Made by a program: the position numbers and the translations under genes. Source: Alteromonadaceae bacterium Bs31 (GTDB taxonomy: Bacteria > Pseudomonadota > Gammaproteobacteria > Pseudomonadales > Cellvibrionaceae). Taken from it: DNA of 42,727 nucleotides. Under the pieces are notes generated by a model that did not search any database, had not been told where the DNA came from, and saw only the letters and a list, made by a program, of their open reading frames with translations. This document shows positions 1 through 41,462 of this stretch, one piece after another (positions within the stretch are counted from its first letter, which is position 1; each line of letters starts with the position of its first letter). The stretch lies in the NCBI GenBank assembly GCA_900177435.1, contig FXAI01000006.1, forward strand, positions 289,521-332,247, read 5' to 3'.

Positions 1-180
1 GTTGGTGTTCCGGGTTCGCCTGTTGGTGTTCCGGGTTCGCCTGTTGGTGTTCCGGGTTCGCCTGTTGGTGTTCCGGGTTCGCCTGTTGGTGTTCCAGGTT
101 CGCCTGTTGGTGTTCCAGGTTCGCCGGTTGGTGTTCCAGGTTCGCCTGTTGGTGTTCCAGGTTCGCCGGTTGGTGTTCCG
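1..180 (-). repeat. 21-bp tandem repeat encoding TGEPGTP heptads
   Basis: Eight full 21-bp units (1-168) and a 12-base partial ninth are visible, and the array continues past the left edge. In the minus-strand frame each unit encodes TGEPGTP. The units differ at only two positions, and both changes are silent (CCC/CCT for Pro, ACA/ACC for Thr). Units 1-4 share one Pro codon; units 5-8 have the other and alternate the Thr codon, suggesting a 42-bp duplication. The repeat behaves as a coding stalk or linker. Confidence 0.9.
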
Positions 181-1859
181 GTGGGAACAGAAGGCCCACC
201 TGTCGGCGTTGGCGTTACTGGCTCTATAGTAGGCTCTGCACTTGGAGGCGAGGTAGGTTCAACATAACTGGGGTCATCACATATAATGCGCGAATCATCA
301 ACATCTGGAGCGACATTTGGGTCGATGGCATTAAAGGGAAATTCCACACCCTTATGTGGCTGACTTAAGGCTATTTCCGTGTACTCAACGCCAGATTTGG
401 CTCGTACTATAGGAAGTCGGCTATCGCCATTTGGATCATAAACCCAGATTCCGTAGGAGTTGTCCACATTTTGGGCCTTATCGCTACCAGTACAGAAATC
501 GCTTACGCCGCCTTCTACTGTCTTACATTGGGACCAACTCACCAGCAACCGTTGAGAGCCATCTCGGTAAGGTGCTACGGCACTAAACCAGCCAGCCATA
601 GATACCTGGTTGGGGAACAGGCTTACGTCTTCGCTAATTACCGGTTGCATTGCCATATTGGCAAAAACTTTGTCAGCGTCACCTTGTGCAGGATCCATTA
701 ACTCCATGACGTTTCCGCCAAGGAAGCTGTTGTAACGATGCTTGAGCAAAGCGACTAAACGACCGCTTTCACTTTGTATAATTTCATCCAGATGCAGTAG
801 GCTTTCTTCAGAATTTTTAGTGGTAACAGTCTGGTACAGCTGCTCCAGCTCGGACCCATCCGCGTTAATTCTCAGCAGCGTGTAGTGATTCGTTGCCAAA
901 ACCGGACCAAATGGGGTTTGTTGCGCATAAGCGCATTGCTCAGGTGCACCCCAGGAATCGGGTTTTTCCATTCCTGCGGGGTATTCACTCTTAAACAGTT
1001 CAGTCGCAGACATTTTACTGAGTGAATTAGCGCCCGCGTCCCCACCATTGCACTCGCGAACAAATTCATAACTGCGCTTCCAGCGAAGAAAAGCCACGCG
1101 ACCGTCAGACAAACTGGCGGGTTTGGTGTCGTGTTGATTTCCGTAGGTGATTTGAACGATGTTCTCACCGGCTGAATTCATGGAGTGAAGTAATGACGGC
1201 CGCTCATTTGCGCCCACTTTGTAGCAATCAGGTTGATCGGCAGGAATTTGATTAAGCGTTGGGTTGTTTGGATTTCCAGCTGCCCTGTCTGAGGAGAATA
1301 CGATCATGCCATCGTCGGCGTAAGCTGGATTGGTATCCTCGCCACTGTTGGCTAAATTGTCCTCTGCTATCACGCGGCGAACACGGCCTGTAGCAAATTC
1401 GTATTCGTAAATATTCCAACTGTTATCAGTACTATGCCCGCTTGGGCCATGGGCCGCGAATAAAACTTTGGAACCATCGTAGCTTACATTTAGGTCCTTT
1501 ACGTCGTAGGCATCACTTTCAAAATAGTCTCGAAGCACATCTCGGTTTACACCATTTACATCAAGGCTCGAACGTCGAACCAATTTTGCGCCAGGGTTGT
1601 ATTCGTAGGGGGAGTAGACGTCCAGAGGCGAGCTGTTTTCATCAAACAGCTTGGCAGACAGCTTTTCAGCGGCCTGCTCCGCGCTTTGCTCTGTATTACG
1701 TTCCACGAAGACAAATGGGGTGTCGTCGGTTATATAGGTTTCTGCTGACGCTGCGTTCTGAGACGCGGGTTCACCGCTACCGCCCGAACAGGCTGCCAGT
1801 GCGGAGACGAGAGAAACCAGAGCGATACGACTCGACTGCGATCTGATTTGATTAAACAT
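1..1859 (-). CDS. Large beta-propeller (PD40/HzsA-like) lipoprotein, 3' end beyond window
   Basis: An uninterrupted minus-strand frame starts at the ATG at 1859 and runs off the left edge (619 codons visible). The N-terminus is a lipoprotein signal peptide with lipobox LAAC, so the cysteine near residue 24 should be acylated. Residues about 120-480 carry propeller-like phrases (SYDGSKVLFA, DDGMIVFSSDR, LSDGRVAFLRW) typical of PD40/TolB-like blades. The overall pattern resembles lipoproteins annotated as related to the hydrazine synthase alpha subunit; that name reflects the fold only, and no catalytic role is claimed. From about residue 540 the chain becomes a Pro/Thr/Gly/Glu linker and then near-perfect TGEPGTP heptads to the window edge. 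It is monocistronic as far as seen, 398 nt downstream of the Agl/Glt-like operon. It is likely a surface or periplasmic protein with an extended stalk; the function is unknown. Confidence 0.8.
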   Translation of the reverse strand, partial: MFNQIRSQSSRIALVSLVSALAACSGGSGEPASQNAASAETYITDDTPFVFVERNTEQSAEQAAEKLSAKLFDENSSPLDVYSPYEYNPGAKLVRRSSLDVNGVNRDVLRDYFESDAYDVKDLNVSYDGSKVLFAAHGPSGHSTDNSWNIYEYEFATGRVRRVIAEDNLANSGEDTNPAYADDGMIVFSSDRAAGNPNNPTLNQIPADQPDCYKVGANERPSLLHSMNSAGENIVQITYGNQHDTKPASLSDGRVAFLRWKRSYEFVRECNGGDAGANSLSKMSATELFKSEYPAGMEKPDSWGAPEQCAYAQQTPFGPVLATNHYTLLRINADGSELEQLYQTVTTKNSEESLLHLDEIIQSESGRLVALLKHRYNSFLGGNVMELMDPAQGDADKVFANMAMQPVISEDVSLFPNQVSMAGWFSAVAPYRDGSQRLLVSWSQCKTVEGGVSDFCTGSDKAQNVDNSYGIWVYDPNGDSRLPIVRAKSGVEYTEIALSQPHKGVEFPFNAIDPNVAPDVDDSRIICDDPSYVEPTSPPSAEPTIEPVTPTPTGGPSVPTGTPTGEPGTPTGEPGTPTGEPGTPTGEPGTPTGEPGTPTGEPGTPTGEPGTPTGEPGTP

Positions 1860-1906
1860 GATGCATACTCCAAACAGTGTTTCGTTTATGACGCTTGCAT
1901 TCATCT

Positions 1907-1926
1907 TGTGCATAACCTGTGCATAA
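1907..1926 (-). promoter_or_regulatory. Tandem TTATGCACA boxes upstream of the lipoprotein gene
   Basis: Two copies of TGTGCATAA (plus strand) lie at 1907-1915 and 1918-1926, exactly 11 bp apart, so they sit on the same DNA face. Read on the minus strand they are TTATGCACA, which fits the relaxed DnaA box TTATNCACA. They lie about 48-67 bp upstream of the lipoprotein start codon, where an operator would be expected. Whether DnaA or another factor binds is unknown. Confidence 0.35.
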
Positions 1927-2256: not shown

Positions 2257-3225
2257 TTAGCTTGGAAGGAAAACGAACTTGTATTCTACTTCTGTTTTTG
2301 ACACTTCTTTTGCACCAAAATTAATTGCGCTAATGCGTTCCAGTATTCTTTGCTCCAAGTCTGTAAGACCTAGCTCACTCGCGAGCAATGAAAGCTGCGA
2401 TATGGAACCGTCCGGCTCTATCACCAGATAAAAAGTGAATTTACCCGCTAACTCCGGGTTCTCATTCAAAGCTTTTTGGTAGAGCGAATGGACGCTACTC
2501 TTGGTGCGTTCCAACGTACGTCGAATACTTTCCATGTCTCGCTGCCCTTTCTTGTAGGAGCCGTGACTGGCCAAAGTACTCACTGGGGCATTCCCCATAC
2601 CCAAACCATCTACTGAGGTAGATTCGTAAGCAGCAAGGCCTGGTGCACTATCCGATAACATCGCATCATCTACTTCAATACCATCGCTTCGCCGCACTGC
2701 ACCGTCCTTACCGAGAAATTCCCTTTCATTTCTCCTTACTTCACCCTGGGTGCTCGTAGTTACATTTCGGCTCTGCAAGCGAGCCAGATCCAGTGAGCCC
2801 CTAAGCGCTGTAAGCTGAGAAGAAAGCTCATTTAAACCGCGGGAATGCTCTGAAGCGTTGGGGCCATCCTGCTTAACTTTTTCTCGTGGTTTTTGCTGTG
2901 CCATCTTTGGGCTAGGTTGAGGTTGTTCAGCTTTTACATTCTCAACCGGCTTCGATTTTACAGGCTTAACCGGCGTTTTCGGCAAGGGTGGTGGCGGCAC
3001 AGGTTCTTCAATAGGATCCATCATTACCGTGGTAATCACCTCAGTACTTTCTCGCTCATCATAACTAAGCTCAAATACAGGTAACCACGGTATAGCAATC
3101 AGCAAGAGTAACAGAGGTAGGAGTATGCGCTTTAGAATACGCTGAAATTTCTCTTCCTGCTTCTCGTCTTGGCTCCACGCCAACTGTAGGTCAAGTGCTA
3201 AGGGTTGCATTATTGCAGCTGACAT
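2257..3225 (-). CDS. TonB-like energy-coupling protein, AgmX/PglI C-terminal domain (GltG-like)
   Basis: 322 aa. A cytoplasmic N-terminus is followed by one membrane segment (about residues 33-50), then a Pro/Lys-rich periplasmic stretch (about 72-110) with a PPPPLP run, as in TonB proteins. The C-terminal ~100 residues have the AgmX/PglI-type pattern: basic helix, GKFTFYLVIEPDGSI, a conserved leucine-rich segment, and a final INFGAKEV/EYKFVF strand. It is the last gene of the operon, 5 nt after the second ExbD gene. By analogy with GltG/AgmX of Myxococcus and with TonB, it probably couples the proton-driven ExbB-ExbD complex to periplasmic or outer-membrane partners. A dedicated TonB for transport is possible, but no TonB-dependent receptor gene is nearby. 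Confidence 0.75.
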   Translation of the reverse strand: MSAAIMQPLALDLQLAWSQDEKQEEKFQRILKRILLPLLLLLIAIPWLPVFELSYDERESTEVITTVMMDPIEEPVPPPPLPKTPVKPVKSKPVENVKAEQPQPSPKMAQQKPREKVKQDGPNASEHSRGLNELSSQLTALRGSLDLARLQSRNVTTSTQGEVRRNEREFLGKDGAVRRSDGIEVDDAMLSDSAPGLAAYESTSVDGLGMGNAPVSTLASHGSYKKGQRDMESIRRTLERTKSSVHSLYQKALNENPELAGKFTFYLVIEPDGSISQLSLLASELGLTDLEQRILERISAINFGAKEVSKTEVEYKFVFLPS

Positions 3226-3230
3226 AACAA

Positions 3231-3764
3231 TTACCCTCCCACGCCATCGTCAGGAACAAACATGCCTTGCCCCTGTACATCTGCGGCTACCCGGTTAACC
3301 GCCAGTGAAATATTCAAAAAGCCCTGCTCTCGACAAGTGGCCATTACACTGCGCACCAGTGCGTAAGGCACATCACGGTGCCCCATAATCGTAAGAGATA
3401 AACCTTTTTCTTTTTCAAAGGCAGTTAGCTCAGTAATTTTTTCTTTATGCTCTGTGAGTGCTTGCTGCAGAGCTTCAATGAATTCGTCTGGTTTTTCCAA
3501 AATAGGGCCGATTTCAGCGATTGGTGTGCTGCCGACGAAAAGTTGCTCATCGCCTACCACAACCATTAAATCGGCGTGGGGCGCTTTACCCGAGCTGGAG
3601 TCTGGCAACTTCACGAACTCTGCCTGCTCAATATTTTTACTGTCACCTGAATTTAGCAGCAGGAAGAAAACAAGAATCGTAAAAATATCCATTAAGGCAA
3701 TCAGACTAAGCTTGGCAGAAGGTGCCTTGTTGTCTCTGCTATAAAAAGCGGTATTGGTTAGCAT
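3231..3764 (-). CDS. ExbD/TolR-family protein 2 (AglS-like)
   Basis: 177 aa with a short N-terminal cytoplasmic tail, one membrane helix (about residues 20-38) containing the family aspartate in the phrase IALMDIFTILVFF, and a periplasmic domain. The Asp is at residue 26, the position that carries protons in ExbD/TolR. Its ATG overlaps the stop of the first ExbD gene by one base (TGATG), indicating translational coupling. Two unequal ExbD/TolR proteins with one ExbB/TolQ is the composition of the AglRQS motor of myxobacterial gliding. It is also found in some MotA/TolQ transport clusters. The C-terminal region contains Pro/Gly-rich FVPDDGVGG. Confidence 0.8.
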   Translation of the reverse strand: MLTNTAFYSRDNKAPSAKLSLIALMDIFTILVFFLLLNSGDSKNIEQAEFVKLPDSSSGKAPHADLMVVVGDEQLFVGSTPIAEIGPILEKPDEFIEALQQALTEHKEKITELTAFEKEKGLSLTIMGHRDVPYALVRSVMATCREQGFLNISLAVNRVAADVQGQGMFVPDDGVGG

Positions 3765-4276
3765 CAGCTCTCATCCCCTAAAGATATTTCAGGAAAGAGT
3801 TCAACCTCAACCAAATTCGCGGCAACCACCGTTTTGTAGGATTTTACTGTTTGCATAGTTGAAATCAAATTTTGGTAGCTCACGCCAGGAATGGCCTTTA
3901 CCACTGCATTGCGCTTTTCTGGCAGTTGTTTTTTTACTGCTTGAAGGATGTAAGACAGTGTTAAATGATCGAAGCTTTCTACAGTTTCTCCACTCTCAAG
4001 CGTTTCAACTTTTAAGGGTATTTCCTGAATTACAACACCGGTGGGATAAATAACCTTAAAGCCTTTGTCGGTAACAACCACCTCCAGTTGTGATTGAGAT
4101 TCGTCGCTGTTATACAGCCCGCCCGTTAAATCAGGAAGTTTGACATCCAGCACAGTTACCTGAGTAAAGGTCATGCTGAGCAATAGCACGGGCACCAAAA
4201 CGATCATTAGATTCATGAACGAGGTTACGTCCAGTTCTGCATCGTCTGTGCCTTTATATGAGAATTTAAAATTCAT
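3764..4276 (-). CDS. ExbD/TolR-family protein 1 (AglQ-like)
   Basis: 170 aa. The single membrane helix begins right after the phrase AELDVTSFMNLM, whose Asp (residue 16) matches the essential proton-carrying Asp of ExbD, TolR and AglQ. The helix is followed by TVLDVKLPDL, typical of the periplasmic exit of this family, and a small periplasmic domain. It starts 10 nt after the ExbB-like gene stop and overlaps the next ExbD gene by one base. It is expected to form the stator with the ExbB-like protein in the inner membrane. Confidence 0.85.
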   Translation of the reverse strand: MNFKFSYKGTDDAELDVTSFMNLMIVLVPVLLLSMTFTQVTVLDVKLPDLTGGLYNSDESQSQLEVVVTDKGFKVIYPTGVVIQEIPLKVETLESGETVESFDHLTLSYILQAVKKQLPEKRNAVVKAIPGVSYQNLISTMQTVKSYKTVVAANLVEVELFPEISLGDES

Positions 4277-4286
4277 GGTTTAAAAC

Positions 4287-5171
4287 TCAAGCTGGTACCA
4301 TATTTCCATCATCTAATTTTTTTCCATCGTCTTTGTCATCAGCCGTGCTTTCGCCTGCCGGAACTTCTGCGCTGTCTTGCGCATTTTCTTGCTTAGGCTG
4401 TTCATGTATTTCATCTGATCCAGGCCCCGCAGACACCACTGGCACGGACTGTTGAGATACCGCAGGCTCAGCCGGTGGTGCAGCGAAGGGCGAACTTGCA
4501 TTTGGGTCGATGATTCGAGGTACACCGGCTTCAATAAAGCGGTGCAGGGTCATGATGTTAAGAAATTTTACAGCGGACATCTCAACACTGGTAATAATTG
4601 CCTTTGTTTTATTCTGCAAAATGGCATTGAGAATGAGCAATGGAATTGCGGCGATCAAACCGAAGGCTGTGGTATTCATCGCCACGGAAATGGAGGACGA
4701 CAACAGTGTGGATTTTTCCGCCGGGTCGGCGTTTGCTACTGCAGTAAAGGCGCCAATCAAACCGATAATCGTACCCAGCAAACCAAGCAAGGTGGCAATG
4801 TTAGCGAGAACGGCGAGATAACTGGTGCGCTGTTCAAGGCGGGGCATAACTTCAAGCATGCCTTCGCTCATTGCATTTTCCACATCGGCCCTCTGTCGAG
4901 ACACCTTCATCATATCCAAGCCGCAACCAATAATTCGCACTATAGGTGCAGTGTTTTCACGGGTGTACATCTGCATTTTTTCCATTTCGGTAGAACGCAG
5001 CAAAGGCAGGAATTCTGCAAAAGCCTTCCGATTACGCATTCTTTCCCAGTTAAGGAATGTCCAACGTTCAACAGCTATCGCCAGACCAATGCAAAAAACG
5101 ATGGCAATGGGGATAAGAAAAAAGCCACCTTCCTGAAAAAACTTAACGATAATACTGTATACATCTGTCAT
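4287..5171 (-). CDS. ExbB/TolQ/MotA-family proton-channel protein (AglR-like)
   Basis: 294 aa with the three-helix topology of the family: TM1 about residues 16-36, TM2 about 118-144 with the signature LGLLGTIIGLIGAF, and TM3 about 160-187 (NTTAFGLIAAIPLLI). A large cytoplasmic loop lies between TM1 and TM2. The last ~75 residues are an unusual acidic, Pro/Ala/Ser-rich tail not found in standard ExbB or TolQ. It sits 20 nt downstream of a small exported-protein gene and directly before two ExbD genes. It probably forms the proton-driven motor of the Agl/Glt-like complex encoded here. The absence of tolA/tolB/pal neighbours argues against the Tol system. Confidence 0.85.
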   Translation of the reverse strand: MTDVYSIIVKFFQEGGFFLIPIAIVFCIGLAIAVERWTFLNWERMRNRKAFAEFLPLLRSTEMEKMQMYTRENTAPIVRIIGCGLDMMKVSRQRADVENAMSEGMLEVMPRLEQRTSYLAVLANIATLLGLLGTIIGLIGAFTAVANADPAEKSTLLSSSISVAMNTTAFGLIAAIPLLILNAILQNKTKAIITSVEMSAVKFLNIMTLHRFIEAGVPRIIDPNASSPFAAPPAEPAVSQQSVPVVSAGPGSDEIHEQPKQENAQDSAEVPAGESTADDKDDGKKLDDGNMVPA

Positions 5172-5191
5172 AACGATTACTCTTTTCTGTA

Positions 5192-5518
5192 TTACTCAAT
5201 AGGGTCTTTGGTTTCGAGCTGCATCTCGTCGTAAATATTCATAGAACGAAGCACCACCTCACGATCTACGAGATCCAGCGTTTGGTCATACTTTACATCC
5301 AGATTCCACTGTAATTTATCCGGTGTGGAAGTACCCTTCCAAGGGATAAAATAACTTACTGCGGGTTGCTCTTTGTCTCCAACAAAAGTGGATTCCAGCC
5401 TGTAGTATGCACCAGGCTCCTCCTCCGTTTTGACTTCTTTAGCTTTTTGCTCATCTTCCGCCAGAACAATTGAACTGCTAAGCCCAATGCAACACAGCAG
5501 CATCAGTCTGTAATTCAC
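5192..5518 (-). CDS. Small exported protein of the Agl/Glt-like operon
   Basis: 108 aa with a clear signal peptide (cleavage likely after SIVLA, near residue 20) and a mature part rich in Glu/Lys and aromatic residues. No family is recognised. The start is a GTG that overlaps the stop of the preceding TPR gene in the sequence GTGA, so translation is probably coupled. Its position between the TPR lipoproteins and the motor genes suggests a periplasmic accessory part of the machine, comparable in place only to small Glt proteins of Myxococcus. Confidence 0.6.
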   Translation of the reverse strand: MNYRLMLLCCIGLSSSIVLAEDEQKAKEVKTEEEPGAYYRLESTFVGDKEQPAVSYFIPWKGTSTPDKLQWNLDVKYDQTLDLVDREVVLRSMNIYDEMQLETKDPIE

Positions 5519-6339
5519 TCTACATCTCCTGCCATCGACAGATTGTTGTCACCTGCACCAGCTTCAATACTGTAGGCAACGCCGGTTCTACCTCGCAACT
5601 CTTGCAACCAATGTGCTACCTTTTCGTCTTTCTTACTATTTAAAAACAGGTAGGCCTCCATATGCTGCTGTGCCAACATAGGCTTGTCCAAATATATATC
5701 GTAGAGAATAGCAAGGTTAAGGTGGGCCTCGGGAAAATCCTTCCACAACCCGAGTGTCTCCGCATAGACGTTTTGCGATGCTATAAACTCGCCGTTAATG
5801 CGCAGCACTTTGGCCAGCCGTAAATAGGCGTTTACATTTTCGGGGTTCACCTCAATCGCTTTTTCAAAGTGTGCCTGTGCGGCGCTAGTGTCATCTGATC
5901 TCAGGGCAATATCCCCTAGCATAACCCACGGCCCGGACAGCGCTTTGTCATTCTCCAGCAGCTCATTCAATTTGCTTGTCGCTACCTCATAGTCACCCGC
6001 CTTAAAAGCTCTGCGTGCGTCTATATACATTGCTACCGACTGCTTTTTTATCCGCCCTTTTTGCTCACCATAGGGATTGGCGCTTGTTTCATAGGGTAGC
6101 AGCACGCCATCTTTTCCAAATTCATCAACAGGCAGGAAGGTTCTGGTAACTATCAACTCAGGCGCCGGCTCTTCTTGGGCCAAGGTATCCTTGCTTGGGT
6201 TGCTCGTGCCGCAACCGACAGAAGCCACTAGAACCGTCAACAGGGTAGCAAAGCGTATAACACGCCAGCTTACCCCATTAGTCTGGGCTGTACCGCTGGC
6301 TTGTCTGGAACAAGCGCGCTTAACGTATTTCATCGCCAT
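5515..6339 (-). CDS. TPR lipoprotein, GltE/AglT-like
   Basis: 274 aa (272 if the ATG at 6333 is used). After a basic N-terminus and hydrophobic segment, a lipobox-like SVGC lies near residue 43, suggesting a lipoprotein with a long signal sequence. Residues about 105-230 contain tetratricopeptide repeats (for example LGDIALRSDDTSAAQAHFEK and VNAYLRLAKVLRINGEF). The gene overlaps the upstream 951-codon gene by 20 nt. In the Myxococcus gliding system, GltE/AglT is a TPR protein next to the TPR protein GltD/AgnA; gene order and size here fit that pair. Assignment to this exact orthologue is inferred. Confidence 0.65.
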   Translation of the reverse strand: MAMKYVKRACSRQASGTAQTNGVSWRVIRFATLLTVLVASVGCGTSNPSKDTLAQEEPAPELIVTRTFLPVDEFGKDGVLLPYETSANPYGEQKGRIKKQSVAMYIDARRAFKAGDYEVATSKLNELLENDKALSGPWVMLGDIALRSDDTSAAQAHFEKAIEVNPENVNAYLRLAKVLRINGEFIASQNVYAETLGLWKDFPEAHLNLAILYDIYLDKPMLAQQHMEAYLFLNSKKDEKVAHWLQELRGRTGVAYSIEAGAGDNNLSMAGDVE

Positions 6340-9175
6340 AACTCACTATTTGTTCGTCTTTGTTAAAACGCTCGGGGTATAGCTCACGCATAGCCTCGAA
6401 ACTCTTTTCAATCCATGGATTGAAATCTCCACCCCATGCACGACTCACATTAGCTGTGTGTACTTCCCTTGCCAGTAATTCAAAGGGTAAAGCCTGTTCC
6501 TCTATGATCTCTCTATAGGTCCTTCTATCATTCTCGGACATTCCTGAAGGAATGGGAGAATCTCTTAAGTCCTGCGCAAATATTTGGTAGAGCCGTCCTA
6601 TTTTGTAGCTCGACTCAGTCACAAACTCTAGGAAGCCATAATCCGCCGCAGACTGATAGCGCTGCAATGCACTCTGCAGTTTTTCATTCTTTCTTGGCAA
6701 GCTCTGCACCAGCGGTAACCTCAAGCGTGTTTTTCTAAACTCCGCATCAAAGTAATTGCCGTACTCCATATTTGCCCAAGCGCCAAGCCACCGACTTCTT
6801 TCAGTCCTCTGGCCGCCTCCCTGCTTATCTCCGTCAATAATTCGTCGCAACCAATAGAGTTTTTTACCTATATCACCCAGAGTTTGATAATTTGTAGCGA
6901 GGTGATAGCGTGCTTCCATGCGGGTATCAAAAGGTTGCTCATACGTGTAAGCGTATCTTTTAAACAGGGTGATAGCTGTGGTGTGGTTCTTATTTTTCTC
7001 ATACATCATTGCAGCAAGAAATAAGGCTTCGCGTTTTATTTCAGGATCTGGATCGTTTTTGCTTAAGCCCAAATACTCTTCTGCAGCCAGAGCCCATTGT
7101 TCGCTTTTTTCATAGGAAAACGCTAACTGTCGTGGAAATTCCAGCGCCATCTTGTGCTCTGGATAGAGCGCCTGCAGCTCTTTTAATTCTGGGATTGCTC
7201 GATCCCATGCCTCCAGCGACAACAACATGACTACAGCGTCATACTGTGCCGTTGCCCTGACCGTAGAGTTGGGCGCCAGCGACTTGATGCGCAAGAAACT
7301 GTCTGCTGCTTGTGCCATTTCGCCGCTATCAGCAAGTGTTTCAGAATGCTTATATACCGCGGAAGCAAGGCGCTCGGTGATAGCAGTATATTCTTCACTA
7401 CCTACAGCAACCAAGGTTCGTTGATTAGTATAGGCGGCCTCAGCTTGCTGATATTTGTTTAATTTAAAAAAGGAGTGGGCCATTATGCCATAGGCAGTTT
7501 TCTTCAACTCGGGATCAAGTGCCGCATTGTTGGCGATCAATGCCTCGGTAATAGTTACAGCCCGCTCGTATTGATCCAGGCTAAACATATATTCCGCCGC
7601 ACTGGTTAATACAGACGGAGATCGCTCATCGCTGTCGAATTTTTCAGAAAAACGCAACATGCTTTCCACTGCGTCTGACTGCCAGCGTTTCAATTCATCG
7701 CTACCATCAACTTTTTTCGCAATGATTTTTTCGTAGCAAATAATGGCTGCATAGCCGGAATCTGCGGCATGTTCTTTTGCGCTCTCGCCTAATGGCTGAT
7801 ACGCAACAAGTTCATAATCACCAACGGCCTCCTCAAAACGTTCTGCCTCAAACAACACTTCGGCCTTTAAGAAACGCATCTCATCAATACGTGAATCTTG
7901 CGGAAAGGTGTCTATATACTGCTGATAAAAAACGGAAGCCTTATCCAGGTAGACCAGTGCTTTCGATTCCATGTTGGCAAGCTTTCGTACAGCTTCTTTT
8001 TTCTGCTTTTTCTGTTCTATCTCTTCCAGCAAATCCTGGCCTGTTGCGTGATTGTGTTGTGCCAGTTCTTCCAGGTAGATTTTCAGCGTAGGCTGGATGT
8101 CATCACGTATACCTTGCACATTTCCCGCGTAGCTTGAATAAATACCATAAGCAGCGATATAAGATTCTTTCTCTATGAGAGACTGATTAGGGAAGCCGCC
8201 TTTTACATAGGTTTCTACCAGCTTTTCGTGTATGCCCGGCGCCTGCTCTGCATTGGGGTGCGCCATAACGAAGGATCGAAAAGACTCCGCCGCAAGCTCG
8301 TACAATTCTTTTTCAAGATAGTAATCACCCATGGTTTTGTAAATCATCCAAACATATTCTTTACTGGCTAACACTGCCACATCTTCAATAGCCGGTGCGC
8401 CACCAATTTTATCTACCGCCAGGCTTACAGAATGCAAGGTATCACTGACCATTGACTGATGCGCCTTGCTCAATTCATCAACAATCATAGTTTCAGAAAA
8501 TAATGAATCTAATACGAAGACAAAACCATCGATGCTTTTCCTGTATTTGGCTTGTTTGTATTGCGCCCAAGCCATCATATAATGGGCATTAACAATAAAC
8601 TTTTCGTTGCCCGACTGCGCAACTGACTGATAGGACTTCTCCGCTAAGGCATAGCGCTGATATCCAAATAAAATATCGCCTTTACGAAAATTTGCCTCGG
8701 CAATATTAATATAGTAAGGGTGCCTCAGGGTTAACTGATCCAACATTTTTAAGGCTTCGCGCTGATTACCTTCCATATCGTAGGCTTTAGCCAATTGGTA
8801 GAGCACTTCGGCATTGTCAGGCGAATCGGGGTATTTCTCCAAAATATCTCTGTAAGACTTAATTGCTTCTACATAATAACTTTTTGGCCTGCCAGTATCG
8901 TTACTCTGCTTTTGCACGCCTTCCATCATGTATACGTCTGCAATTCGGCGTTCAATTTGCTCTTTAAGGAGATCATCTTCAAACAGATGAAGCAGCTCGC
9001 GATACTCTTCGCGAACTTGTTGGTGGTCCATGCTTTCTACAGCCAGTTCTTCATCCTGCTCTGGTTCGTAACTGAGCTGCCCAAGTGTTTTCTGTTTGTT
9101 AGATGCACCACAGGCAGCAATCAACAACACAAAGCCACACACACATATTTTCTTAATAAAATAAAGGTTAGTCAT
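6320..9175 (-). CDS. Large TPR lipoprotein, GltD/AgnA-like
   Basis: 951 aa. The N-terminus has a lipoprotein signal with lipobox IAAC (cysteine near residue 22). Nearly the whole mature chain is alpha-helical repeat with many TPR signatures (for example YLEKELYELAAESFRSFV and EYMFSLDQYERAVTITEAL), probably 15 or more repeats. It starts 2 nt after the stop of the upstream TPR gene and overlaps the downstream one, so it is firmly in the operon. Large periplasmic TPR proteins act as scaffolds; the nearest functional analogue is GltD/AgnA of the myxobacterial Glt complex. Alternatives include a general assembly scaffold for outer-membrane proteins. The ATG at 9175 is supported by the signal peptide. 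Confidence 0.7.
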   Translation of the reverse strand: MTNLYFIKKICVCGFVLLIAACGASNKQKTLGQLSYEPEQDEELAVESMDHQQVREEYRELLHLFEDDLLKEQIERRIADVYMMEGVQKQSNDTGRPKSYYVEAIKSYRDILEKYPDSPDNAEVLYQLAKAYDMEGNQREALKMLDQLTLRHPYYINIAEANFRKGDILFGYQRYALAEKSYQSVAQSGNEKFIVNAHYMMAWAQYKQAKYRKSIDGFVFVLDSLFSETMIVDELSKAHQSMVSDTLHSVSLAVDKIGGAPAIEDVAVLASKEYVWMIYKTMGDYYLEKELYELAAESFRSFVMAHPNAEQAPGIHEKLVETYVKGGFPNQSLIEKESYIAAYGIYSSYAGNVQGIRDDIQPTLKIYLEELAQHNHATGQDLLEEIEQKKQKKEAVRKLANMESKALVYLDKASVFYQQYIDTFPQDSRIDEMRFLKAEVLFEAERFEEAVGDYELVAYQPLGESAKEHAADSGYAAIICYEKIIAKKVDGSDELKRWQSDAVESMLRFSEKFDSDERSPSVLTSAAEYMFSLDQYERAVTITEALIANNAALDPELKKTAYGIMAHSFFKLNKYQQAEAAYTNQRTLVAVGSEEYTAITERLASAVYKHSETLADSGEMAQAADSFLRIKSLAPNSTVRATAQYDAVVMLLSLEAWDRAIPELKELQALYPEHKMALEFPRQLAFSYEKSEQWALAAEEYLGLSKNDPDPEIKREALFLAAMMYEKNKNHTTAITLFKRYAYTYEQPFDTRMEARYHLATNYQTLGDIGKKLYWLRRIIDGDKQGGGQRTERSRWLGAWANMEYGNYFDAEFRKTRLRLPLVQSLPRKNEKLQSALQRYQSAADYGFLEFVTESSYKIGRLYQIFAQDLRDSPIPSGMSENDRRTYREIIEEQALPFELLAREVHTANVSRAWGGDFNPWIEKSFEAMRELYPERFNKDEQIVSYGDEIR

Positions 9176-9177
9176 CT

Positions 9178-10929
9178 TTATTGACTCTCCATCGCTTCAC
9201 TTTCCGACTTGACGTTTTCAAGCTCAAGTAAAGTTGCATCGAACAGACGGGCCTTGGCCAAACGTGACTGTGCCCAGTAATACCGCATACGCTCTTCATG
9301 GTTGTCCAGCTCCGCTCGAACCAGATTACGCATAACAGGCTCTAATTTTTCGATAAAATAGCGTGTCCGTGCTAATTCTTTTGTAATGCGCTTGTGATTA
9401 CCCTTAATTTCACCTGCATAACTGGCCGGCTGAACATAGGGCTGCTTAGCCTTTTTGAGACGATTAATTTTATCTTCCAGTACCAATAAATCATGCTCGG
9501 TGCGGTCGATCAAGACCTGAAAACGCTCCTTGTCGCTTTCTTCAAGAGTTAATGTGGTAAGTTTTATTTCTGCATCCTGATCTTGCAGTTTTTCTTTAAT
9601 TGTTTCACTCCGCGCCAGCAGCTGTTGCAGATCATCCTGCACATATTTGTCCTCTGCATTGGTCAAAACCAACTGGTGCTCTTCTATCTGTATCAGCCAA
9701 TAACTGAGATTTTGCTCTAGCGTGTAAAGTGCGGCGAGATCTTTCAGTGTTTCATTAAAAGGATGGCTGGACATCAGATCAATCAAGAACGGCGTTAGTT
9801 TTTTGTAGTCCACAGAAGCGTTCGCGCCATACCAATCACTCTCGTCCATTATCACTTCAAGGTTGCTGATAAACTCGCGCGGCACATCCTGCTTGGCGAT
9901 AATTTTTCTCGCATCCGCAAGCGTAGCCAAACCCTTCTTAAATGCTTTTTCAGCCATCAGGTTACTTTTCAGGGCTTTTCTCGAAGAACCCTGTTGTTCG
10001 TACAAGTGGGCCAGGAGCACTTTGGATTCCTGCACCTCAGGTATCGCTATAGAACGCTCATCCAGCAATAACAAGGCTGGTATCGCCTCGTTATAAAGCT
10101 TCATCTTAATGGCGGTCCAGGCGTATGAGAGCAAAGCCCGGTTAGAATAGAGTCCACTGGTGCGTATGCTTGTGAGGTAGCTCCAGGCTCGCGGCAAATC
10201 TCCAGCCTGGGTTGCCATTTGCGCAAGGCCATGCTTTGCCCTGTCAGCAAGAGCAAGTAACTCTCTGTCATCTCCCTCATAGACAGCCAACTCTTCGAGA
10301 TTTAGCACTGCGTCGAGCACTTGCCCTGCCCGCAACTGGGTCACAGCGAGGTTAAACAGTAAGTATGAATATTGAGGCAAACGGTTCGACAGATCGTCCA
10401 GAGCTTCGTTGACCGCCTCAAGATGCTCGCCATCATTTTTTACTAAAGAGGCCAGGTAATGGTATTCAATGTGAAGATCATCGGGCATTTGCCCCTGGAC
10501 TTTATCCAGAGCACGATTTGCACTCGCCTTGTCTGATTTGTTGTAGTAAAGCTTTGCCAAGTGATACCAGGCACGGTTCTTCACCTCTACACTACTTCGC
10601 GTATCCAGCAAGGCCTGAAAAAGCTGTAAGGCGTTGTCCGGCATACCATAACTCACCAACATGCCACCGTGTAAGATTCCCGCATGCGCAGTTTTAGCTA
10701 TGGGGTTTTCTACAGAGAGGGAGTAGCGATTTTCCACTAACGCTTCGAAGTATTGCTGCTGATAAAACTCGTATAGCACTGGGCCATACTCTAACTGGAA
10801 GGATGATTCCACATGAGATTTTAATTGTGCGAAGCTGGCCGGAGCAAATAGCAGGCATAAAAGCCCAAAGCCGAAGCCGGATGACCTTACCCAACGAAGC
10901 ACTGTTGTTATTATTGTGTTTTCAGGCAT
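9178..10929 (-). CDS. Periplasmic TPR and coiled-coil protein
   Basis: 583 aa from the ATG at 10929; an in-frame GTG at 10938 would add three residues. A signal peptide ends after ASFA. Residues about 40-350 form degenerate TPR repeats (WYHLAKLYYNKSDKASANRA and neighbours). Residues about 420-500 are strongly coiled-coil (heptads rich in Leu, Glu, Lys, Asp). No catalytic motif is seen. It lies 15 nt after the first gene of the operon and 2 nt before the large TPR lipoprotein gene. It is probably a periplasmic structural component that bridges partners of the ExbB/ExbD motor complex. It could equally be called a generic TPR protein. Confidence 0.65.
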   Translation of the reverse strand: MPENTIITTVLRWVRSSGFGFGLLCLLFAPASFAQLKSHVESSFQLEYGPVLYEFYQQQYFEALVENRYSLSVENPIAKTAHAGILHGGMLVSYGMPDNALQLFQALLDTRSSVEVKNRAWYHLAKLYYNKSDKASANRALDKVQGQMPDDLHIEYHYLASLVKNDGEHLEAVNEALDDLSNRLPQYSYLLFNLAVTQLRAGQVLDAVLNLEELAVYEGDDRELLALADRAKHGLAQMATQAGDLPRAWSYLTSIRTSGLYSNRALLSYAWTAIKMKLYNEAIPALLLLDERSIAIPEVQESKVLLAHLYEQQGSSRKALKSNLMAEKAFKKGLATLADARKIIAKQDVPREFISNLEVIMDESDWYGANASVDYKKLTPFLIDLMSSHPFNETLKDLAALYTLEQNLSYWLIQIEEHQLVLTNAEDKYVQDDLQQLLARSETIKEKLQDQDAEIKLTTLTLEESDKERFQVLIDRTEHDLLVLEDKINRLKKAKQPYVQPASYAGEIKGNHKRITKELARTRYFIEKLEPVMRNLVRAELDNHEERMRYYWAQSRLAKARLFDATLLELENVKSESEAMESQ

Positions 10930-10944
10930 AACAACCACGTGGTC

Positions 10945-11571
10945 TTACCAACGTTTCAATTTAAAGACAGGCTCCTGGATCGAGCCATCATCAATAACAG
11001 CCAGCTCAAGAAACTCGCTACCAATGCTTTTTTCAAACTCCAAATTAGCGGCGCGCTTGTAAGGCCGCCCATCTGCGCCAACGCCGGTAAAAAAAGCGGT
11101 AATTGAGTGTATGCCCTCATTCAGGTTGGTGACGTACAATTTGTGTACTCCCCCCCTCGCCAAAGCTGCTCGCTGCTTTTCTGAATACACATGACTGCTC
11201 ACCAGCTTGCCATCGATTTTCAGTTTCACGCCCTCTAACTGAAAAAATTGGCCCGTACTTAGAGACAGGAAAACGGTGTAGCGAGTATTCGAAGGGAAAA
11301 GCAGCTTCTCCTCCATCTTGCGCAGATCCTTGTTAAGCTCGATCACATCGTTCTTCAAGGACTGAATATTGCCGGCTATTGCACGTAAATCATTCAGGCT
11401 TTCCTGCTCACCCTCTACAGCTTGCTCAGCAAATTGCTCTGCATCGACATTCTCTACCCATGCTTTACTCTGCTCATCTGGGCTGGGTATATCTTGAGCA
11501 AACGCAGACTCTTGAGTAATTACACTAAAAAACACAACTAAATATATTGATTTCCTTAACAAAATTTTCAT
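10945..11571 (-). CDS. Exported protein, first gene of the Agl/Glt-like operon
   Basis: 208 aa from the ATG at 11571. A longer frame with ATG at 11610 exists, but the start at 11571 gives a clean signal peptide (MKILLRKSIYLVVFF, cleavage after SAFA) and is preceded by GAGACG. The mature part has a helical, probably coiled-coil segment (about 50-95 in this numbering), then a beta-rich domain with KLKIDGK, HKLYVTNLNEGIHSITAFF and a C-terminal FKLKRW. The beta part resembles small periplasmic Ig-like or PEGA-like folds, but no family can be named with confidence. It is divergent from the barrel gene at 11879, with which it shares a 300-bp control region. Confidence 0.6.
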   Translation of the reverse strand: MKILLRKSIYLVVFFSVITQESAFAQDIPSPDEQSKAWVENVDAEQFAEQAVEGEQESLNDLRAIAGNIQSLKNDVIELNKDLRKMEEKLLFPSNTRYTVFLSLSTGQFFQLEGVKLKIDGKLVSSHVYSEKQRAALARGGVHKLYVTNLNEGIHSITAFFTGVGADGRPYKRAANLEFEKSIGSEFLELAVIDDGSIQEPVFKLKRW

Positions 11572-11720
11572 TTGTCGTCTCATCTTGCACTGAAATTTTA
11601 GAAAATTCATACTTTATGGGCTTTCAAGGCCTTATTCTGGCTACAAGCCAGCCCGTAGTTTTAGCAAAGTTTGAAGTTTAGACGCTACCCTACTGTTTTT
11701 CTTGATGAATACACTAAAAA

Positions 11721-11878: not shown

Positions 11879-12562
11879 ATGGCACGTAAGTCTACAAAAC
11901 AGGCTCTATACATTATAAAAAGTGGACTCGTCCTCTCTCTTATTGCCCTCCAGCCCTCAGTTCACGCTCAAAGCGGCGGCACTATTGGCGGTCTGTCTCA
12001 GGACAAAAAGGAAGCGGTTATCGAACCGGAAAAGCAACCAGAACCCGTACATTCGGCACAGATCGACACAGAACACTTCGAATTGGGCGCATATGTCGGC
12101 GTACTGAATGTAGAGGATTTTAATTCAAACCCGGTGATGGGGCTGTCTTTCGTCTACCATATCAACGATAAATTCATAGCGCAGGCGCTTTATGGCAGCT
12201 CCACTGTGAGCAAAGCCACATTTGAGAAACTCAGCGACTCAGATTTTCTCGCAGATGAGGACCGCAACTTTCGCTATCTGGAGCTCCTTGGTGGTTATAA
12301 ATTACTCGGTGGCCGGTCTTTTTTTGGATCTAATACTAAAGTTGACTCAGATCTTTATCTTAACGCCGGCTTTGGGCAAGTAAACTTTGCCGATAACAGT
12401 GAGACGGGATTGGTGATTGGCGGCAGTTACCGCCTGGTGATGACAGACTGGATGACCATGAGTGTTGATATCCGTGACCATATATTCAACCGGGAGTTTA
12501 TTGGCGATAGCAAAGTGACCCACAACACGGAATTCAGCGTTGGTATAAACGCTTTATTCTAA
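11879..12562 (+). CDS. Small outer-membrane beta-barrel protein (OMP_myx_plus-like)
   Basis: 227 aa with a signal peptide ending SVHA, a Pro/Glu-rich spacer, then alternating beta-strands from about residue 65 (FELGAYVGVLNVEDF through a final strand ending in Leu-Phe, the usual outer-membrane insertion signal). An AAGGAA ribosome site lies 6-7 nt before the ATG. The phrase YLELLGGYKLL and the strand pattern match the other two barrels in this window (13635-14243, 14213-15022). Such 8-strand barrels are frequent next to Agl/Glt-like clusters. Its stop codon overlaps the stop of the convergent gene by 4 bp. It probably gives the outer-membrane part of the machine; an unrelated porin-like role is possible. 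Confidence 0.7.
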   Translation: MARKSTKQALYIIKSGLVLSLIALQPSVHAQSGGTIGGLSQDKKEAVIEPEKQPEPVHSAQIDTEHFELGAYVGVLNVEDFNSNPVMGLSFVYHINDKFIAQALYGSSTVSKATFEKLSDSDFLADEDRNFRYLELLGGYKLLGGRSFFGSNTKVDSDLYLNAGFGQVNFADNSETGLVIGGSYRLVMTDWMTMSVDIRDHIFNREFIGDSKVTHNTEFSVGINALF

Positions 12563-13634: not shown

Positions 13635-14243
13635 CTACAGCAGGTAGTTAAAGCCTATAGAAAAACCACCATTATGAGTGTTTTCTTTTTCTGCGATCAA
13701 GTTTGACTCGTATATGTAGTGTCTATAATCCGCTCTGACAATAAAGCGGCGTGCCAACGCAAATTCATAGCCCGCACCAAGCGTGTAGGTGAAACTGCCC
13801 TCACCGCCAAAATCCGTATCCCCTACTCCGCCAACCAGATAAAAGCCAGAAAGCTTGGCATTCCCCTCGCTTGGGAAAAATTCGGCCTGAAACAGCTTAT
13901 AACCCACTAACAGGTCGAAATGGTTGAATTTACGATCATCCCCATCAATAAGCTGCCCTTGGCTTTCCTCGAAGGAGGACAAACCTGCGTCAGCAATCAG
14001 GTAATTAAACTGCAAGAAAAAATCTTCTGTTGCAGCGAAGGTGAAATTGGCGCCAAGCGTATACTCACTGCCGAAATCCTGAATATTCAAGACGCCCGCA
14101 CTCACACCAAAGGAGAAAAATTCATTGTCGATACTGTCGGCATCACCGCTGACCAAAGCATCTTCTTGCGCAAGAGCCGGAAGAGAAAGACCAAAGATGC
14201 CAACGACAAGAATTAGAAGAATGTATTGAAACCGATTTTCCAT
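13635..14243 (-). CDS. Small outer-membrane beta-barrel protein (OMP_myx_plus-like)
   Basis: 202 aa. A signal peptide ends ALA before QEDAL. The remainder is a beta-barrel: SFGVSAGVLNIQDFG, HFDLLVGYKLF, TLGAGYEFALARRF, and a last strand GFSIGFNYLL. It shares the phrases GVLN-x-x-DF and LLVGYKLF with the barrel at 11879-12562, so the two are paralogues. Its start lies inside the 3' end of the upstream SH3-barrel gene (31-nt overlap), indicating translational coupling. It is likely to sit in the outer membrane with its partner. Confidence 0.7.
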   Translation of the reverse strand: MENRFQYILLILVVGIFGLSLPALAQEDALVSGDADSIDNEFFSFGVSAGVLNIQDFGSEYTLGANFTFAATEDFFLQFNYLIADAGLSSFEESQGQLIDGDDRKFNHFDLLVGYKLFQAEFFPSEGNAKLSGFYLVGGVGDTDFGGEGSFTYTLGAGYEFALARRFIVRADYRHYIYESNLIAEKENTHNGGFSIGFNYLL

Positions 14244-40595: not shown

Positions 40596-41462
40596 TTATG
40601 CAGCGATAGCTGCTCTTTCTTCAAATTCAACAGGGCTAACCCCATCGTTTGCAGAATGTCTTCTTTTGCGGTTATAAAATATTTCGATGTAGCTAAATAT
40701 ACCCGAACGTGCGGCCTCTATCGACTGAAAGTTCTTTGCGTAGATCAACTCCACTTTCAATCTGGCGTAGAAAGACTCCATCACGGCATGATCCCAACAG
40801 TTGCCCTTGCGGCTCATACTACGCGTTATACCATGTCGCTCAAGAAACCCAACATACTCATTCGAGCGATACTGCGTCCCTCTATCAGAATGGACGATAA
40901 GACCCGAGCTTACTCCCCTAGCATCAATAGCCATTTGCATAGCCTCGGTAATCAGCTCGACCGTCATGGTCTCCCCAAAGCTCCAGCCAATGATCTTTCG
41001 TGAGTAAAGATCCATAACCGTTGCCAAATACAACCACTTCCTTTCTACCCAGATATAGGTGATATCTGTTACCCACTTCTGATTCGGCCTCTCTGTAGTG
41101 AAATCGCGCCACAGCAGGTTATCGGCGACGTTATGCATTGTGAGTGAATGTCCGCCGTAGTTGAAAGCCTTGCCATTACGGGCCACGATACCCTCTTCCT
41201 GCATGATTTTCGCAACATAGTTGACCGAACACGCGTGTCCCAGCTCATTCAGTTCCTGAGTGATCCTGGGGGCGCCATAAGCTGCCTCAAACTCTTCGTA
41301 GGTATCTTTAACCAGGCTTGTGACTTGCTCTCTACGCTGTTCAGTTCGGCTAACTGGACGCTTTCGCCAGCGATAAAAACCTGACGGGTGAACATCCAGA
41401 ACTCGACACATCAACCGTATATCAAATTGACCCACATGCTGCTCTATCAGCTCGTACTTCAC
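40596..41462 (-). CDS. IS3-family transposase OrfB (DDE integrase core)
   Basis: 288 aa with GTG start at 41462. Catalytic triad Asp133 (WVTDITYIW), Asp193 (HSDRGTQY) and Glu229 (MESFYARLK), with the D(35)E spacing of IS3. The N-terminal HTH_21-like region has SGFYRWRKRP. The frame is intact to NDGVSPVEFEERAAIAA. It overlaps orfA by 41 nt in another frame and is normally made as an OrfAB fusion by frameshifting. Confidence 0.92.
   Translation of the reverse strand: MKYELIEQHVGQFDIRLMCRVLDVHPSGFYRWRKRPVSRTEQRREQVTSLVKDTYEEFEAAYGAPRITQELNELGHACSVNYVAKIMQEEGIVARNGKAFNYGGHSLTMHNVADNLLWRDFTTERPNQKWVTDITYIWVERKWLYLATVMDLYSRKIIGWSFGETMTVELITEAMQMAIDARGVSSGLIVHSDRGTQYRSNEYVGFLERHGITRSMSRKGNCWDHAVMESFYARLKVELIYAKNFQSIEAARSGIFSYIEIFYNRKRRHSANDGVSPVEFEERAAIAA

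What the first reader, a model, noticed from the sequence alone, without database searches (positions are those of the whole stretch)
2257..11571. Agl/Glt-like trans-envelope motor operon in a non-myxobacterial genome
Seen: nine tightly packed genes encoding one ExbB/TolQ protein, two ExbD/TolR proteins with membrane Asp residues, a TonB-like protein with an AgmX/PglI-type C-terminus, three TPR proteins (two lipoprotein-like), and two further exported proteins. Known: in Myxococcus the AglR-Q-S motor with GltD, GltE and GltG drives gliding and spore-coat assembly, and gammaproteobacterial paralogous clusters have been described. Inference: this operon builds a proton-driven machine spanning both membranes, acting in motility, surface polymer movement or envelope assembly. 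What it moves is unknown. The coiled-coil/TPR protein, first-gene product and 108-aa protein have no named family and may be new parts.
Basis: partly seen in the sequence, partly recalled or inferred. Interest (0 to 1): 0.72.

Follow-up and report, generated by a model that had tools for sequence, protein, structure and literature searches.

The report
Proton motor operon with surface adhesin
A bacterium that is not a myxobacterium carries a version of the machine that myxobacteria use to glide; one of its two motor axle proteins lacks the usual proton-binding acid, and it sits beside outer-membrane barrels and a likely surface adhesin, so how it works and what it moves can now be tested.

Summary
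The nine-gene operon is real. It is a member of the Agl/Glt "core complex" that Luciano et al. 2011 described in gammaproteobacteria, so it is not new in kind. Gene 2 corresponds to GltC and gene 1 probably to their "additional gene".

The tools add three things. (1) The first ExbD (AglQ position) has Asn where the proton-binding Asp belongs, in 79 of 80 motors of this type; the second has Asp in 80 of 80. In M. xanthus the same change, AglQ D28N, paralyses the motor. (2) The operon is flanked by GltA/GltB-family barrels, which the 2011 paper restricted to Myxococcales and Bdellovibrionales, and by a large PD40-PKD-fibro-slime lipoprotein. In 38 relatives, fibro-slime proteins occur in 11 of 12 genomes with this subtype and 0 of 26 others. 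(3) Another paralogue's gltC-D-E set lies in a type VI secretion locus, in six families.

Best explanation: a one-acid proton motor pulls a trans-envelope TPR/TonB-like chain on an adhesin-bearing outer-membrane complex. Its identity is near-certain; the cargo is inferred.

The parts
10945..11610 (-). Gene 1: 221-aa exported protein; probably the 'additional gene' of Luciano et al.
   Evidence: aligned family A2; found in 37 of 40 further class clusters; no hit in 8 myxobacterial and Geobacter stretches; no named family; long helix then beta strands only in a poor model
9178..10938 (-). GltC counterpart: 586-aa exported TPR/coiled-coil protein
   Evidence: family profile hits a Myxococcus GltC (L176, 674 aa, itself NF033756 at 1092 bits) at E 1e-7; the window protein does not itself hit NF033756
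6320..9175 (-). GltD counterpart: 951-aa TPR lipoprotein
   Evidence: Lipobox IAAC; profile hits Hyalangium GltD at 1e-66
5515..6339 (-). GltE counterpart: 274-aa TPR protein, lipoprotein-like by eye (the lipobox pattern did not match)
   Evidence: NF033758 26 bits, cut-off 225; profile hits Hyalangium GltE at 2e-36
5192..5518 (-). 108-aa exported protein with G[DN]xEQPxVxYxxPW motif; possible GltF counterpart
   Evidence: alignment; found in 38 of 40 further class clusters; same place and size as GltF; profile comparison with GltF weak
4287..5171 (-). AglR counterpart (ExbB/TolQ family)
   Evidence: PF01618 90.3 bits; tree
3764..4276 (-). AglQ counterpart (ExbD family) with Asn at the canonical proton-binding Asp
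   Evidence: PF02472 42.7 bits; FMNLMIVLVP
3231..3764 (-). AglS counterpart (ExbD family) with the canonical Asp
   Evidence: PF02472 50.5 bits; LMDIFTILVF
2257..3225 (-). GltG counterpart: TonB-like, one membrane helix, Pro-rich linker, AgmX/PglI tail; no FHA domain found
   Evidence: NF033768 61 bits; NF033760 46.8 bits, cut-off 650; no Pfam hit
11879..12562 (+). Outer-membrane barrel, OMP_myx_plus (GltA/GltB family), divergent neighbour
   Evidence: TIGR04565 135.9 bits, cut-off 60; same family as Myxococcus GltA and GltB
13635..14243 (-). Second OMP_myx_plus barrel
   Evidence: TIGR04565 105.5 bits
14213..15022 (-). SH3 domain plus outer-membrane barrel
   Evidence: PF08239 and PF13505 over cut-off; TIGR04565 23.7 bits, below cut-off
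3..1913 (-). N-terminal part of a surface-type lipoprotein: lipobox, PD40/TolB-like propeller, Pro/Thr repeats; continues beyond the window into PKD domains and a fibro-slime/PA14 domain across an assembly gap
   Evidence: the two pieces were searched apart

Best explanation
It is an Agl/Glt core machine of the gammaproteobacterial kind, in a subtype (A) seen so far in one bacterial family, coupled to its own outer-membrane module. Working model: (1) AglR5 with an AglQ-AglS axle uses proton flow; in this machine only AglS carries the proton-binding Asp, so the axle is asymmetric. The residues are shown; the heterodimer and the work cycle are inferred. (2) Axle motion works on the TonB-like GltG, whose AgmX/PglI tail reaches the periplasmic TPR chain GltC-GltD-GltE with the 108-aa protein and gene 1. 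This is inferred from homology with AglR-GltG. (3) The TPR lipoproteins connect to GltA/GltB-family barrels. Linkage is shown; contact is inferred. (4) The barrels carry or expose the PD40-PKD-fibro-slime lipoprotein, which grips polysaccharide outside the cell and is pulled or moved. Near-strict co-occurrence is shown; cargo role and ligand are inferred. Likely outcome: active adhesion to, or displacement along, polymer surfaces rather than solute import. Identity as an Agl/Glt core: about 0.95. Asymmetric one-acid motor: about 0.7. Fibro-slime lipoprotein as the working surface part: about 0.5.
For: Nine-gene order is conserved in 12 of 12 subtype-A loci; the two barrels and the SH3-barrel are present in 12 of 12 and a PD40 gene in 12 of 12 (11; G013's, about 12 kb away), while two other neighbours tested (mutarotase, 184-aa gene) were found only in the window. 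Profiles reach myxobacterial GltD/E/G/C; motor tree. Asn/Asp split: 79 of 80 and 80 of 80; both Asp in 4 of 4 myxobacterial operons, and Asp in 12 of 12 other ExbDs. Fibro-slime: 11 of 12 subtype-A genomes, one copy each, 0 of 26 others, p 1e-8 uncorrected for kinship. Barrel family: 42 of 63 class genomes with GltD, 0 of 211 without; within 20 kb of a GltD in 30 of 42.
Against: No expression, interaction or motility data. In M. xanthus AglQ D28N kills the motor, so a native Asn could mean the two ExbDs do not form a mixed axle (AglS2 could be the motor). G012 has subtype A without a fibro-slime domain. The PD40 gene is 343 bases away and may have its own promoter. Subtype A is confined to one family in the genomes examined, so shared descent inflates the co-occurrence p-value. 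The PD40 protein of L010 lacks the fibro-slime domain, so adhesion need not be general. TPR profiles cross-match. 21 of 63 class genomes with GltD lack an over-cut-off barrel. Motility has not been demonstrated in Fibrobacter, whose fibro-slime proteins bind cellulose (PMC3079729, passages).
Confidence: 0.5

Rival explanations
1. An envelope or surface-polymer assembly machine like Nfs: the motor rotates or drags the outer-membrane complex to lay down, compact or anchor an extracellular polymer or surface layer, and the PD40 lipoprotein is a structural part, not an adhesin.
For: Agl-Nfs does this in M. xanthus spores (PMC3858216, passages). Core clusters are found in bacteria not known to glide (PMC3169522 section 12). 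PD40 proteins are linked to other subtypes too, and the one scanned (L010) has no fibro-slime domain.
Against: By eye, among the ORFs listed in the window, no polysaccharide synthesis or export gene adjoins the operon (no search was run for this). Fibro-slime/PA14 and PKD domains point to binding outside the cell.
Confidence: 0.3
2. A true gliding motility machine of the Myxococcus type.
For: Core, GltA/B-family barrels and an adhesin candidate are all present.
Against: No convincing MglA in 38 relatives (two weak hits at 2e-4 and 3e-4, in G016 and G012). GltJ model matched at 17.5 bits only, cut-off 450. GltH, GltI, GltK, AglZ and CglB were not searched.
Confidence: 0.15
3. A TonB-ExbBD-like energiser for uptake of large oligosaccharides through outer-membrane barrels, as proposed for a similar operon in Fibrobacter (PMC6851124).
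For: TonB-like GltG and barrels. The paper reports the FSU_2400-2403 operon and some TPR proteins raised on cellulose (passages).
Against: TonB, ExbB and ExbD equivalog cut-offs are missed by a wide margin. The barrels match a 161-position OMP_myx_plus model; large TonB-dependent receptors would be far bigger (recalled).
Confidence: 0.08
4. A second Tol-Pal-like system for outer-membrane constriction.
For: TolQ, TolR and TolB-like matches.
Against: All are below equivalog cut-offs (57.9 of 221 bits for TolQ). The ExbB tree separates it from four other ExbB/TolQ-type proteins of the genome. No Pal was noticed by eye among the ORFs read; none was searched for.
Confidence: 0.04

Closest known systems
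Agl/Glt core complex of gammaproteobacteria, Geobacter and Fibrobacter (Luciano et al. 2011, PMC3169522; sections 6, 7, 11, 12, 13 and passages read)
   Same: One cluster with gltC, gltD, gltE, gltG, aglR, aglQ, aglS plus one gene without myxobacterial homologue. Duplications were also reported there for two Marinobacter, Teredinibacter and Saccharophagus.
   Different: That paper limits gltA, gltB and gltF to Myxococcales and Bdellovibrionales. Here GltA/B-family barrels adjoin the core, a second small exported gene is nearly constant, and an adhesin-like lipoprotein is tied to this subtype. The sections and passages read do not mention the Asn or a type VI link; its supplements were not seen.
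M. xanthus AglRQS-GltA-K gliding machine
   Same: Homologous motor, GltC/D/E/G, and GltA/GltB-family barrels.
   Different: Asn at the AglQ Asp28 site; GltG without FHA; no convincing MglA.
M. xanthus Agl-Nfs spore-coat machine (PMC3858216, passages)
   Same: Same motor and Glt paralogues.
   Different: No spore-coat or polymer export genes noticed here (by eye only).
Tol-Pal and TonB-ExbBD
   Same: Same ExbB/ExbD superfamily and a TonB-like transducer.
   Different: Below all equivalog cut-offs matched; two unlike ExbDs; large TPR lipoproteins.
Motor-linked vWA transducers with paired tolR genes and a TPR gene (PMC12204202, passages)
   Same: TolQ-like protein with two unlike TolR-like proteins and a TPR protein.
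   Different: There the transducer is a vWA protein; here it is GltG with an AgmX/PglI tail.

Membership tests
Agl/Glt core complex (Luciano 2011, Group B) | gltC, D, E, G and aglR, Q, S in one cluster | tested here: met
   the GltC match is the weakest (1e-7)
Agl/Glt core complex (Luciano 2011, Group B) | Extra gene without myxobacterial homologue | tested here: met
   Gene 1: no hit in 8 stretches (not whole genomes) from Myxococcus, Hyalangium and Geobacter. That it is the very gene meant is inferred: the figure naming it was not readable
Agl/Glt core complex (Luciano 2011, Group B) | Motor groups with AglR rather than TolQ/ExbB | tested here: met
   100/96; long branches flagged; two MotA-like rows of the own genome (L205, L209) were left out
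Agl/Glt core complex (Luciano 2011, Group B) | GltG with AgmX/PglI tail | tested here: met
   NF033768 61 bits, cut-off 40
M. xanthus gliding machine | GltG equivalog (FHA plus tail, 650 bits) | tested here: not met
   46.8 bits; no FHA
M. xanthus gliding machine | Asp in both AglQ and AglS | tested here: not met
   Asn in the AglQ counterpart
M. xanthus gliding machine | GltA/GltB outer-membrane barrels | tested here: met
   Family level only: TIGR04565 135.9 and 105.5 bits; Myxococcus GltA and GltB are the same family
M. xanthus gliding machine | MglA | tested here: not met
   own genome none; 2 weak hits in 38
M. xanthus gliding machine | GltH, GltI, GltK, AglZ, CglB | not tested
   No query was run for them
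M. xanthus gliding machine | Drives surface motility | not testable with these tools
   -
M. xanthus gliding machine | GltF | tested here: inconclusive
   108-aa protein: same place and size, colinear motif; core profile score 12.5 against a best of 11.9 in 60 shuffles; full-length comparison 61% probability, signal peptides included
Tol-Pal | TolQ/TolR equivalog scores | tested here: not met
   57.9 of 221; 21.6 and 19.9 of 127.3 bits
TonB-ExbBD | ExbB/ExbD equivalog scores | tested here: not met
   ExbB 41.9 of 206.2 bits; ExbD 19.7 of 216 and lower

The most novel reading that the evidence does not exclude
Agl/Glt machines of this class run on an asymmetric axle, AglQ(Asn)-AglS(Asp), with a single proton site. 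They are a general-purpose envelope motor fitted with different heads: here a fibro-slime adhesin complex that grips plant or algal polysaccharide, elsewhere in the same genome a type VI secretion apparatus.
Probability: 0.35. Interest if true: 0.85.

Novelty: new variant of a known kind. Interest (0 to 1): 0.64.

Why it matters
Whether AglQ and AglS form homo- or heterodimers is stated to be unknown in PMC9389320 (passages), and whether a 5:2 motor needs both acids is, to my knowledge, open. A class of natural motors in which one axle protein lacks the acid makes both testable without engineered fusions. The linked barrels and adhesin give a concrete cargo candidate for a complex whose function Luciano et al. 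called unknown in 2011. They also suggest that outer-membrane parts belonged to the machine outside the deltaproteobacteria too.

Tried and rejected
Viral contigs and plasmids hold no relative of the GltD counterpart. Single-sequence structure prediction of gene 1 gave pLDDT 55.7, too poor for a fold search; none was run. PDB sequence searches gave only TolQ/ExbB/ExbD for the two motor proteins tried and nothing credible for gene 1. GltF identity of the 108-aa protein was tested and left open. Promoter-like sites were fewer than in shuffles (10, mean 15.4) and terminator-like sites little above them (15, mean 11.1); not used. The idea that the operon stands alone was rejected by the neighbour survey. 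In the class survey at most 3 GltD candidates per genome were scored. In one search I left out 5 small GltD fragments, 2 second pieces and all barrels below cut-off.
Full report
Observation. Nine minus-strand ORFs run from 11610 to 2257 with gaps between -20 and +20 bases. Pfam confirms ExbB (90.3 bits) and two ExbD (50.5 and 42.7 bits). NCBIfam gives the last protein the AgmX/PglI tail (61 bits, cut-off 40) and a weak GltG match (46.8, cut-off 650), and gives the 274-aa TPR protein a weak GltE match (26.1, cut-off 225; other TPR models score higher); the 951-aa protein's best named hit is tol_pal_ybgF (69.2, cut-off 90.1).

Relatives. In 38 related genomes the 951-aa protein has matches in 25. 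The source genome holds three such clusters at E 1e-3 or better (A: the window; B: contig C45; C: contig C25), and a divergent fourth (D: contig C41), found through its barrel. I fetched 40 stretches and mapped them with profiles started from the window genes. Subtype A occurs in 12 genomes. All 12 have genes 1-9, two OMP_myx_plus-type barrels and an SH3-barrel. A PD40 gene follows in 11 within the stretch; in G013 it lies about 12 kb away. Two other neighbours tested (mutarotase, 184-aa gene) were found in the window only, so the outer-membrane genes are kept while these are not. G024 (68% complete) has a cut subtype-A-like fragment and was counted as not A.

Link to Myxococcus. An MglA scan of named genomes gave Myxococcus sp. 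CA023, Hyalangium, Sorangium, Geobacter and Enhygromyxa as handles. Profiles of the window-type proteins hit Hyalangium GltD (1e-66), GltE (2e-36) and GltG (6e-28), Myxococcus GltG (2e-23), GltC (1e-7) and GltA (1e-6); gene 1, the 108-aa protein and PD40 hit nothing in the 8 stretches searched. TPR profiles cross-match, so the GltC line rests also on gene order. The Myxococcus GltC is NF033756 at 1092 bits, and the two genes beside it, of GltA and about GltB length and order, are both OMP_myx_plus (168 and 119 bits). OMP_myx_plus is thus the GltA/GltB family. The ExbB tree of 42 proteins puts subtypes A, B, T6, D and both Myxococcus/Hyalangium motor operons together, apart from 10 other ExbB/TolQ proteins (100/96), with A one clade (100/100). 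Long branches are flagged by the program, and two MotA-like rows (L205, L209) were left out.

What was known. Luciano et al. 2011 (PMC3169522; sections 6, 7, 11, 12, 13 and passages) describe this core in gammaproteobacteria, with duplications in Marinobacter, Teredinibacter and Saccharophagus, an additional gene without myxobacterial homologue, unknown function, and gltA, B, F, H-K confined to Myxococcales and Bdellovibrionales. The window operon belongs to that core.

New point 1, the proton site. Aligned on the canonical Asp, the first ExbD has Asn in 46 of 46 and the second Asp in 46 of 46 window-type motors (12 A, 24 B, 9 type-VI-linked, 1 D). In four myxobacterial operons both have Asp, and 12 other ExbDs of these genomes have Asp. 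A further 40 class clusters gave 34 with both ExbDs in the stretch: Asn 33 of 34, Asp 34 of 34; the exception is L256 (G054), a divergent motor with two Asp. Totals: 79 of 80 and 80 of 80. The Myxococcus AglQ-type protein (162 aa, as in Luciano's Table 1) has this Asp at residue 28. AglQ D28N is reported to abolish proton conductance and paralyse the machine (PMC3858216, passages; the original Sun et al. 2011 not read). A review (PMC9389320, passages) says that AglQ and AglS are predicted to carry the conserved aspartate and that it is not known whether they form homo- or heterodimers. A search on AglQ, AglS, aspartate, asparagine, heterodimer and stator (12 of 1268 listed) showed no title or abstract on this Asn.

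New point 2, the outer-membrane module. In 274 class genomes the GltD profile matches 63 and OMP_myx_plus passes its cut-off in 42; all 42 are among the 63, none among the 211 without GltD. The nearest barrel lies within 20 kb of a GltD in 30 of 42, at 23 kb in one, and in 11 only on other contigs. In the 40 further stretches, several cut by contig ends, 11 hold a barrel, 11 an SH3-barrel and 9 a PD40 gene. The lipoprotein downstream of the window operon has a lipobox, PD40 propeller, Pro/Thr repeats, PKD domains and a C-terminal fibro-slime/PA14 domain (107.5 bits, cut-off 45). Fibro-slime domains occur in 11 of 38 relatives, one each; all 11 are subtype-A genomes and in all 11 the domain lies downstream of the subtype-A gltG (about 16 kb away in G013); G012 is the A genome without one. 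Fisher p is 1e-8, without correction for kinship. A fibro-slime protein is tied to cellulose binding in Fibrobacter, where motility has not been demonstrated (PMC3079729, passages); F. succinogenes also has the core (Luciano). Fibrobacter proteomics found four fibro-slime proteins, three TPR proteins and a TonB/ExbB/ExbD operon raised on cellulose, four other TPR proteins lowered (PMC6851124, passages). No listed title or abstract ties fibro-slime to an Agl/Glt machine (15 of 360 listed).

New point 3, outside the window. Cluster C lies in a type VI secretion locus. gltC-gltD-gltE-108aa follow clpV, tssG, tssF, tssE and tssC in 9 of 9 C loci; these type VI genes are in 0 of 12 A and 0 of 20 B loci. 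In the source genome, at the far end of the same locus, after FHA, tssJ, tssK, tssL, tssM, tagF, a phosphatase and a kinase gene, is a complete aglR-aglQ-aglS-gltG operon. Such a motor operon lies 25.5-26.1 kb from gltD in 5 of 6 other genomes of the family whose flanks I read (not seen in G013). In other families it was seen in G165, G238 and G114 (gltG cut by the stretch), 13.1-26.6 kb from gltD; G276 shows only a cut aglR at the contig end, and in G174 none was seen. What lies between was checked only in the source genome. In the class survey 6 of 274 genomes, of six families, have GltD within 11 kb of tssG, out of 46 with tssG; in the 38 relatives 17 have tssG, and the nine with cluster C have it beside gltD. 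Type-VI-linked GltD is one clade (SH-aLRT 100), and so is its AglR (100/100). Searches list no title or abstract describing this (13 of 13, 11 of 11 and 15 of 18 listed).

Mechanism. Shown: gene content, order, residues, linkage, kinship. Inferred: complex formation, direction of force, cargo. The best model is a one-acid proton motor that pulls GltG and a TPR chain against barrels bearing a polysaccharide-gripping lipoprotein. The native Asn is either evidence for a mixed AglQ-AglS axle with one active site, or a sign that AglQ left the motor; a structure of the complex decides. Gliding of the Myxococcus type is less likely: MglA has no convincing homologue; several Glt parts were not searched.

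Verdict. The operon is a known kind. The asymmetric proton site and the subtype-specific adhesin module are new to me and were not found in the searches named. Hence a new variant of a known kind, with a higher interest if the one-acid axle or the type VI link is confirmed.

Noticed in passing
L055, L212, L213 (G000:C25:287000-318800); gltC-D-E side also in L057, L059, L061, L064, L066-L068, L082, L183-L187: An Agl/Glt paralogue is built into a type VI secretion gene cluster: gltC-D-E-108aa at one end, aglR-Q-S-gltG at the other. GltD beside tssG is seen in six families of the class and forms one clade.
   Followed up: partly
L011 (G000:C41:78000-97900): A fourth, divergent Glt cluster: GltD-like 1161 aa, GltC-like 504 aa, barrel, 793-aa GltG-like ORF, GltF-like 104 aa, two ExbD and ExbB.
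   Followed up: partly
L010 5379-10075 (G000:C41:43-48 kb); L001 2000-2524: An outer-membrane module with no motor gene found in the 20-kb stretch: PD40 plus hydrazine-synthase-alpha-like domain protein, SH3-barrel and OMP_myx_plus barrel, followed by a thioredoxin-like gene (by eye); may serve cluster B.
   Followed up: partly
L256 (G054): The only core cluster of 80 whose first ExbD has Asp; its second ExbD is also unusual, suggesting a swapped motor.
   Followed up: no
window 1-270; L083 about 6420-6521: The repeat region of the PD40 lipoprotein gene holds an assembly gap (about 100 N) just outside the window.
   Followed up: yes
L055 5783-7027 (+): A 414-aa protein with no Pfam hit, conserved in 8 of 9 Glt-linked type VI loci, opposite the 108-aa gene.
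   Followed up: no
window 40596-41462 (-): An integrase/transposase-like ORF of the IS3 type, recognised by eye only; no search was run.
   Followed up: no
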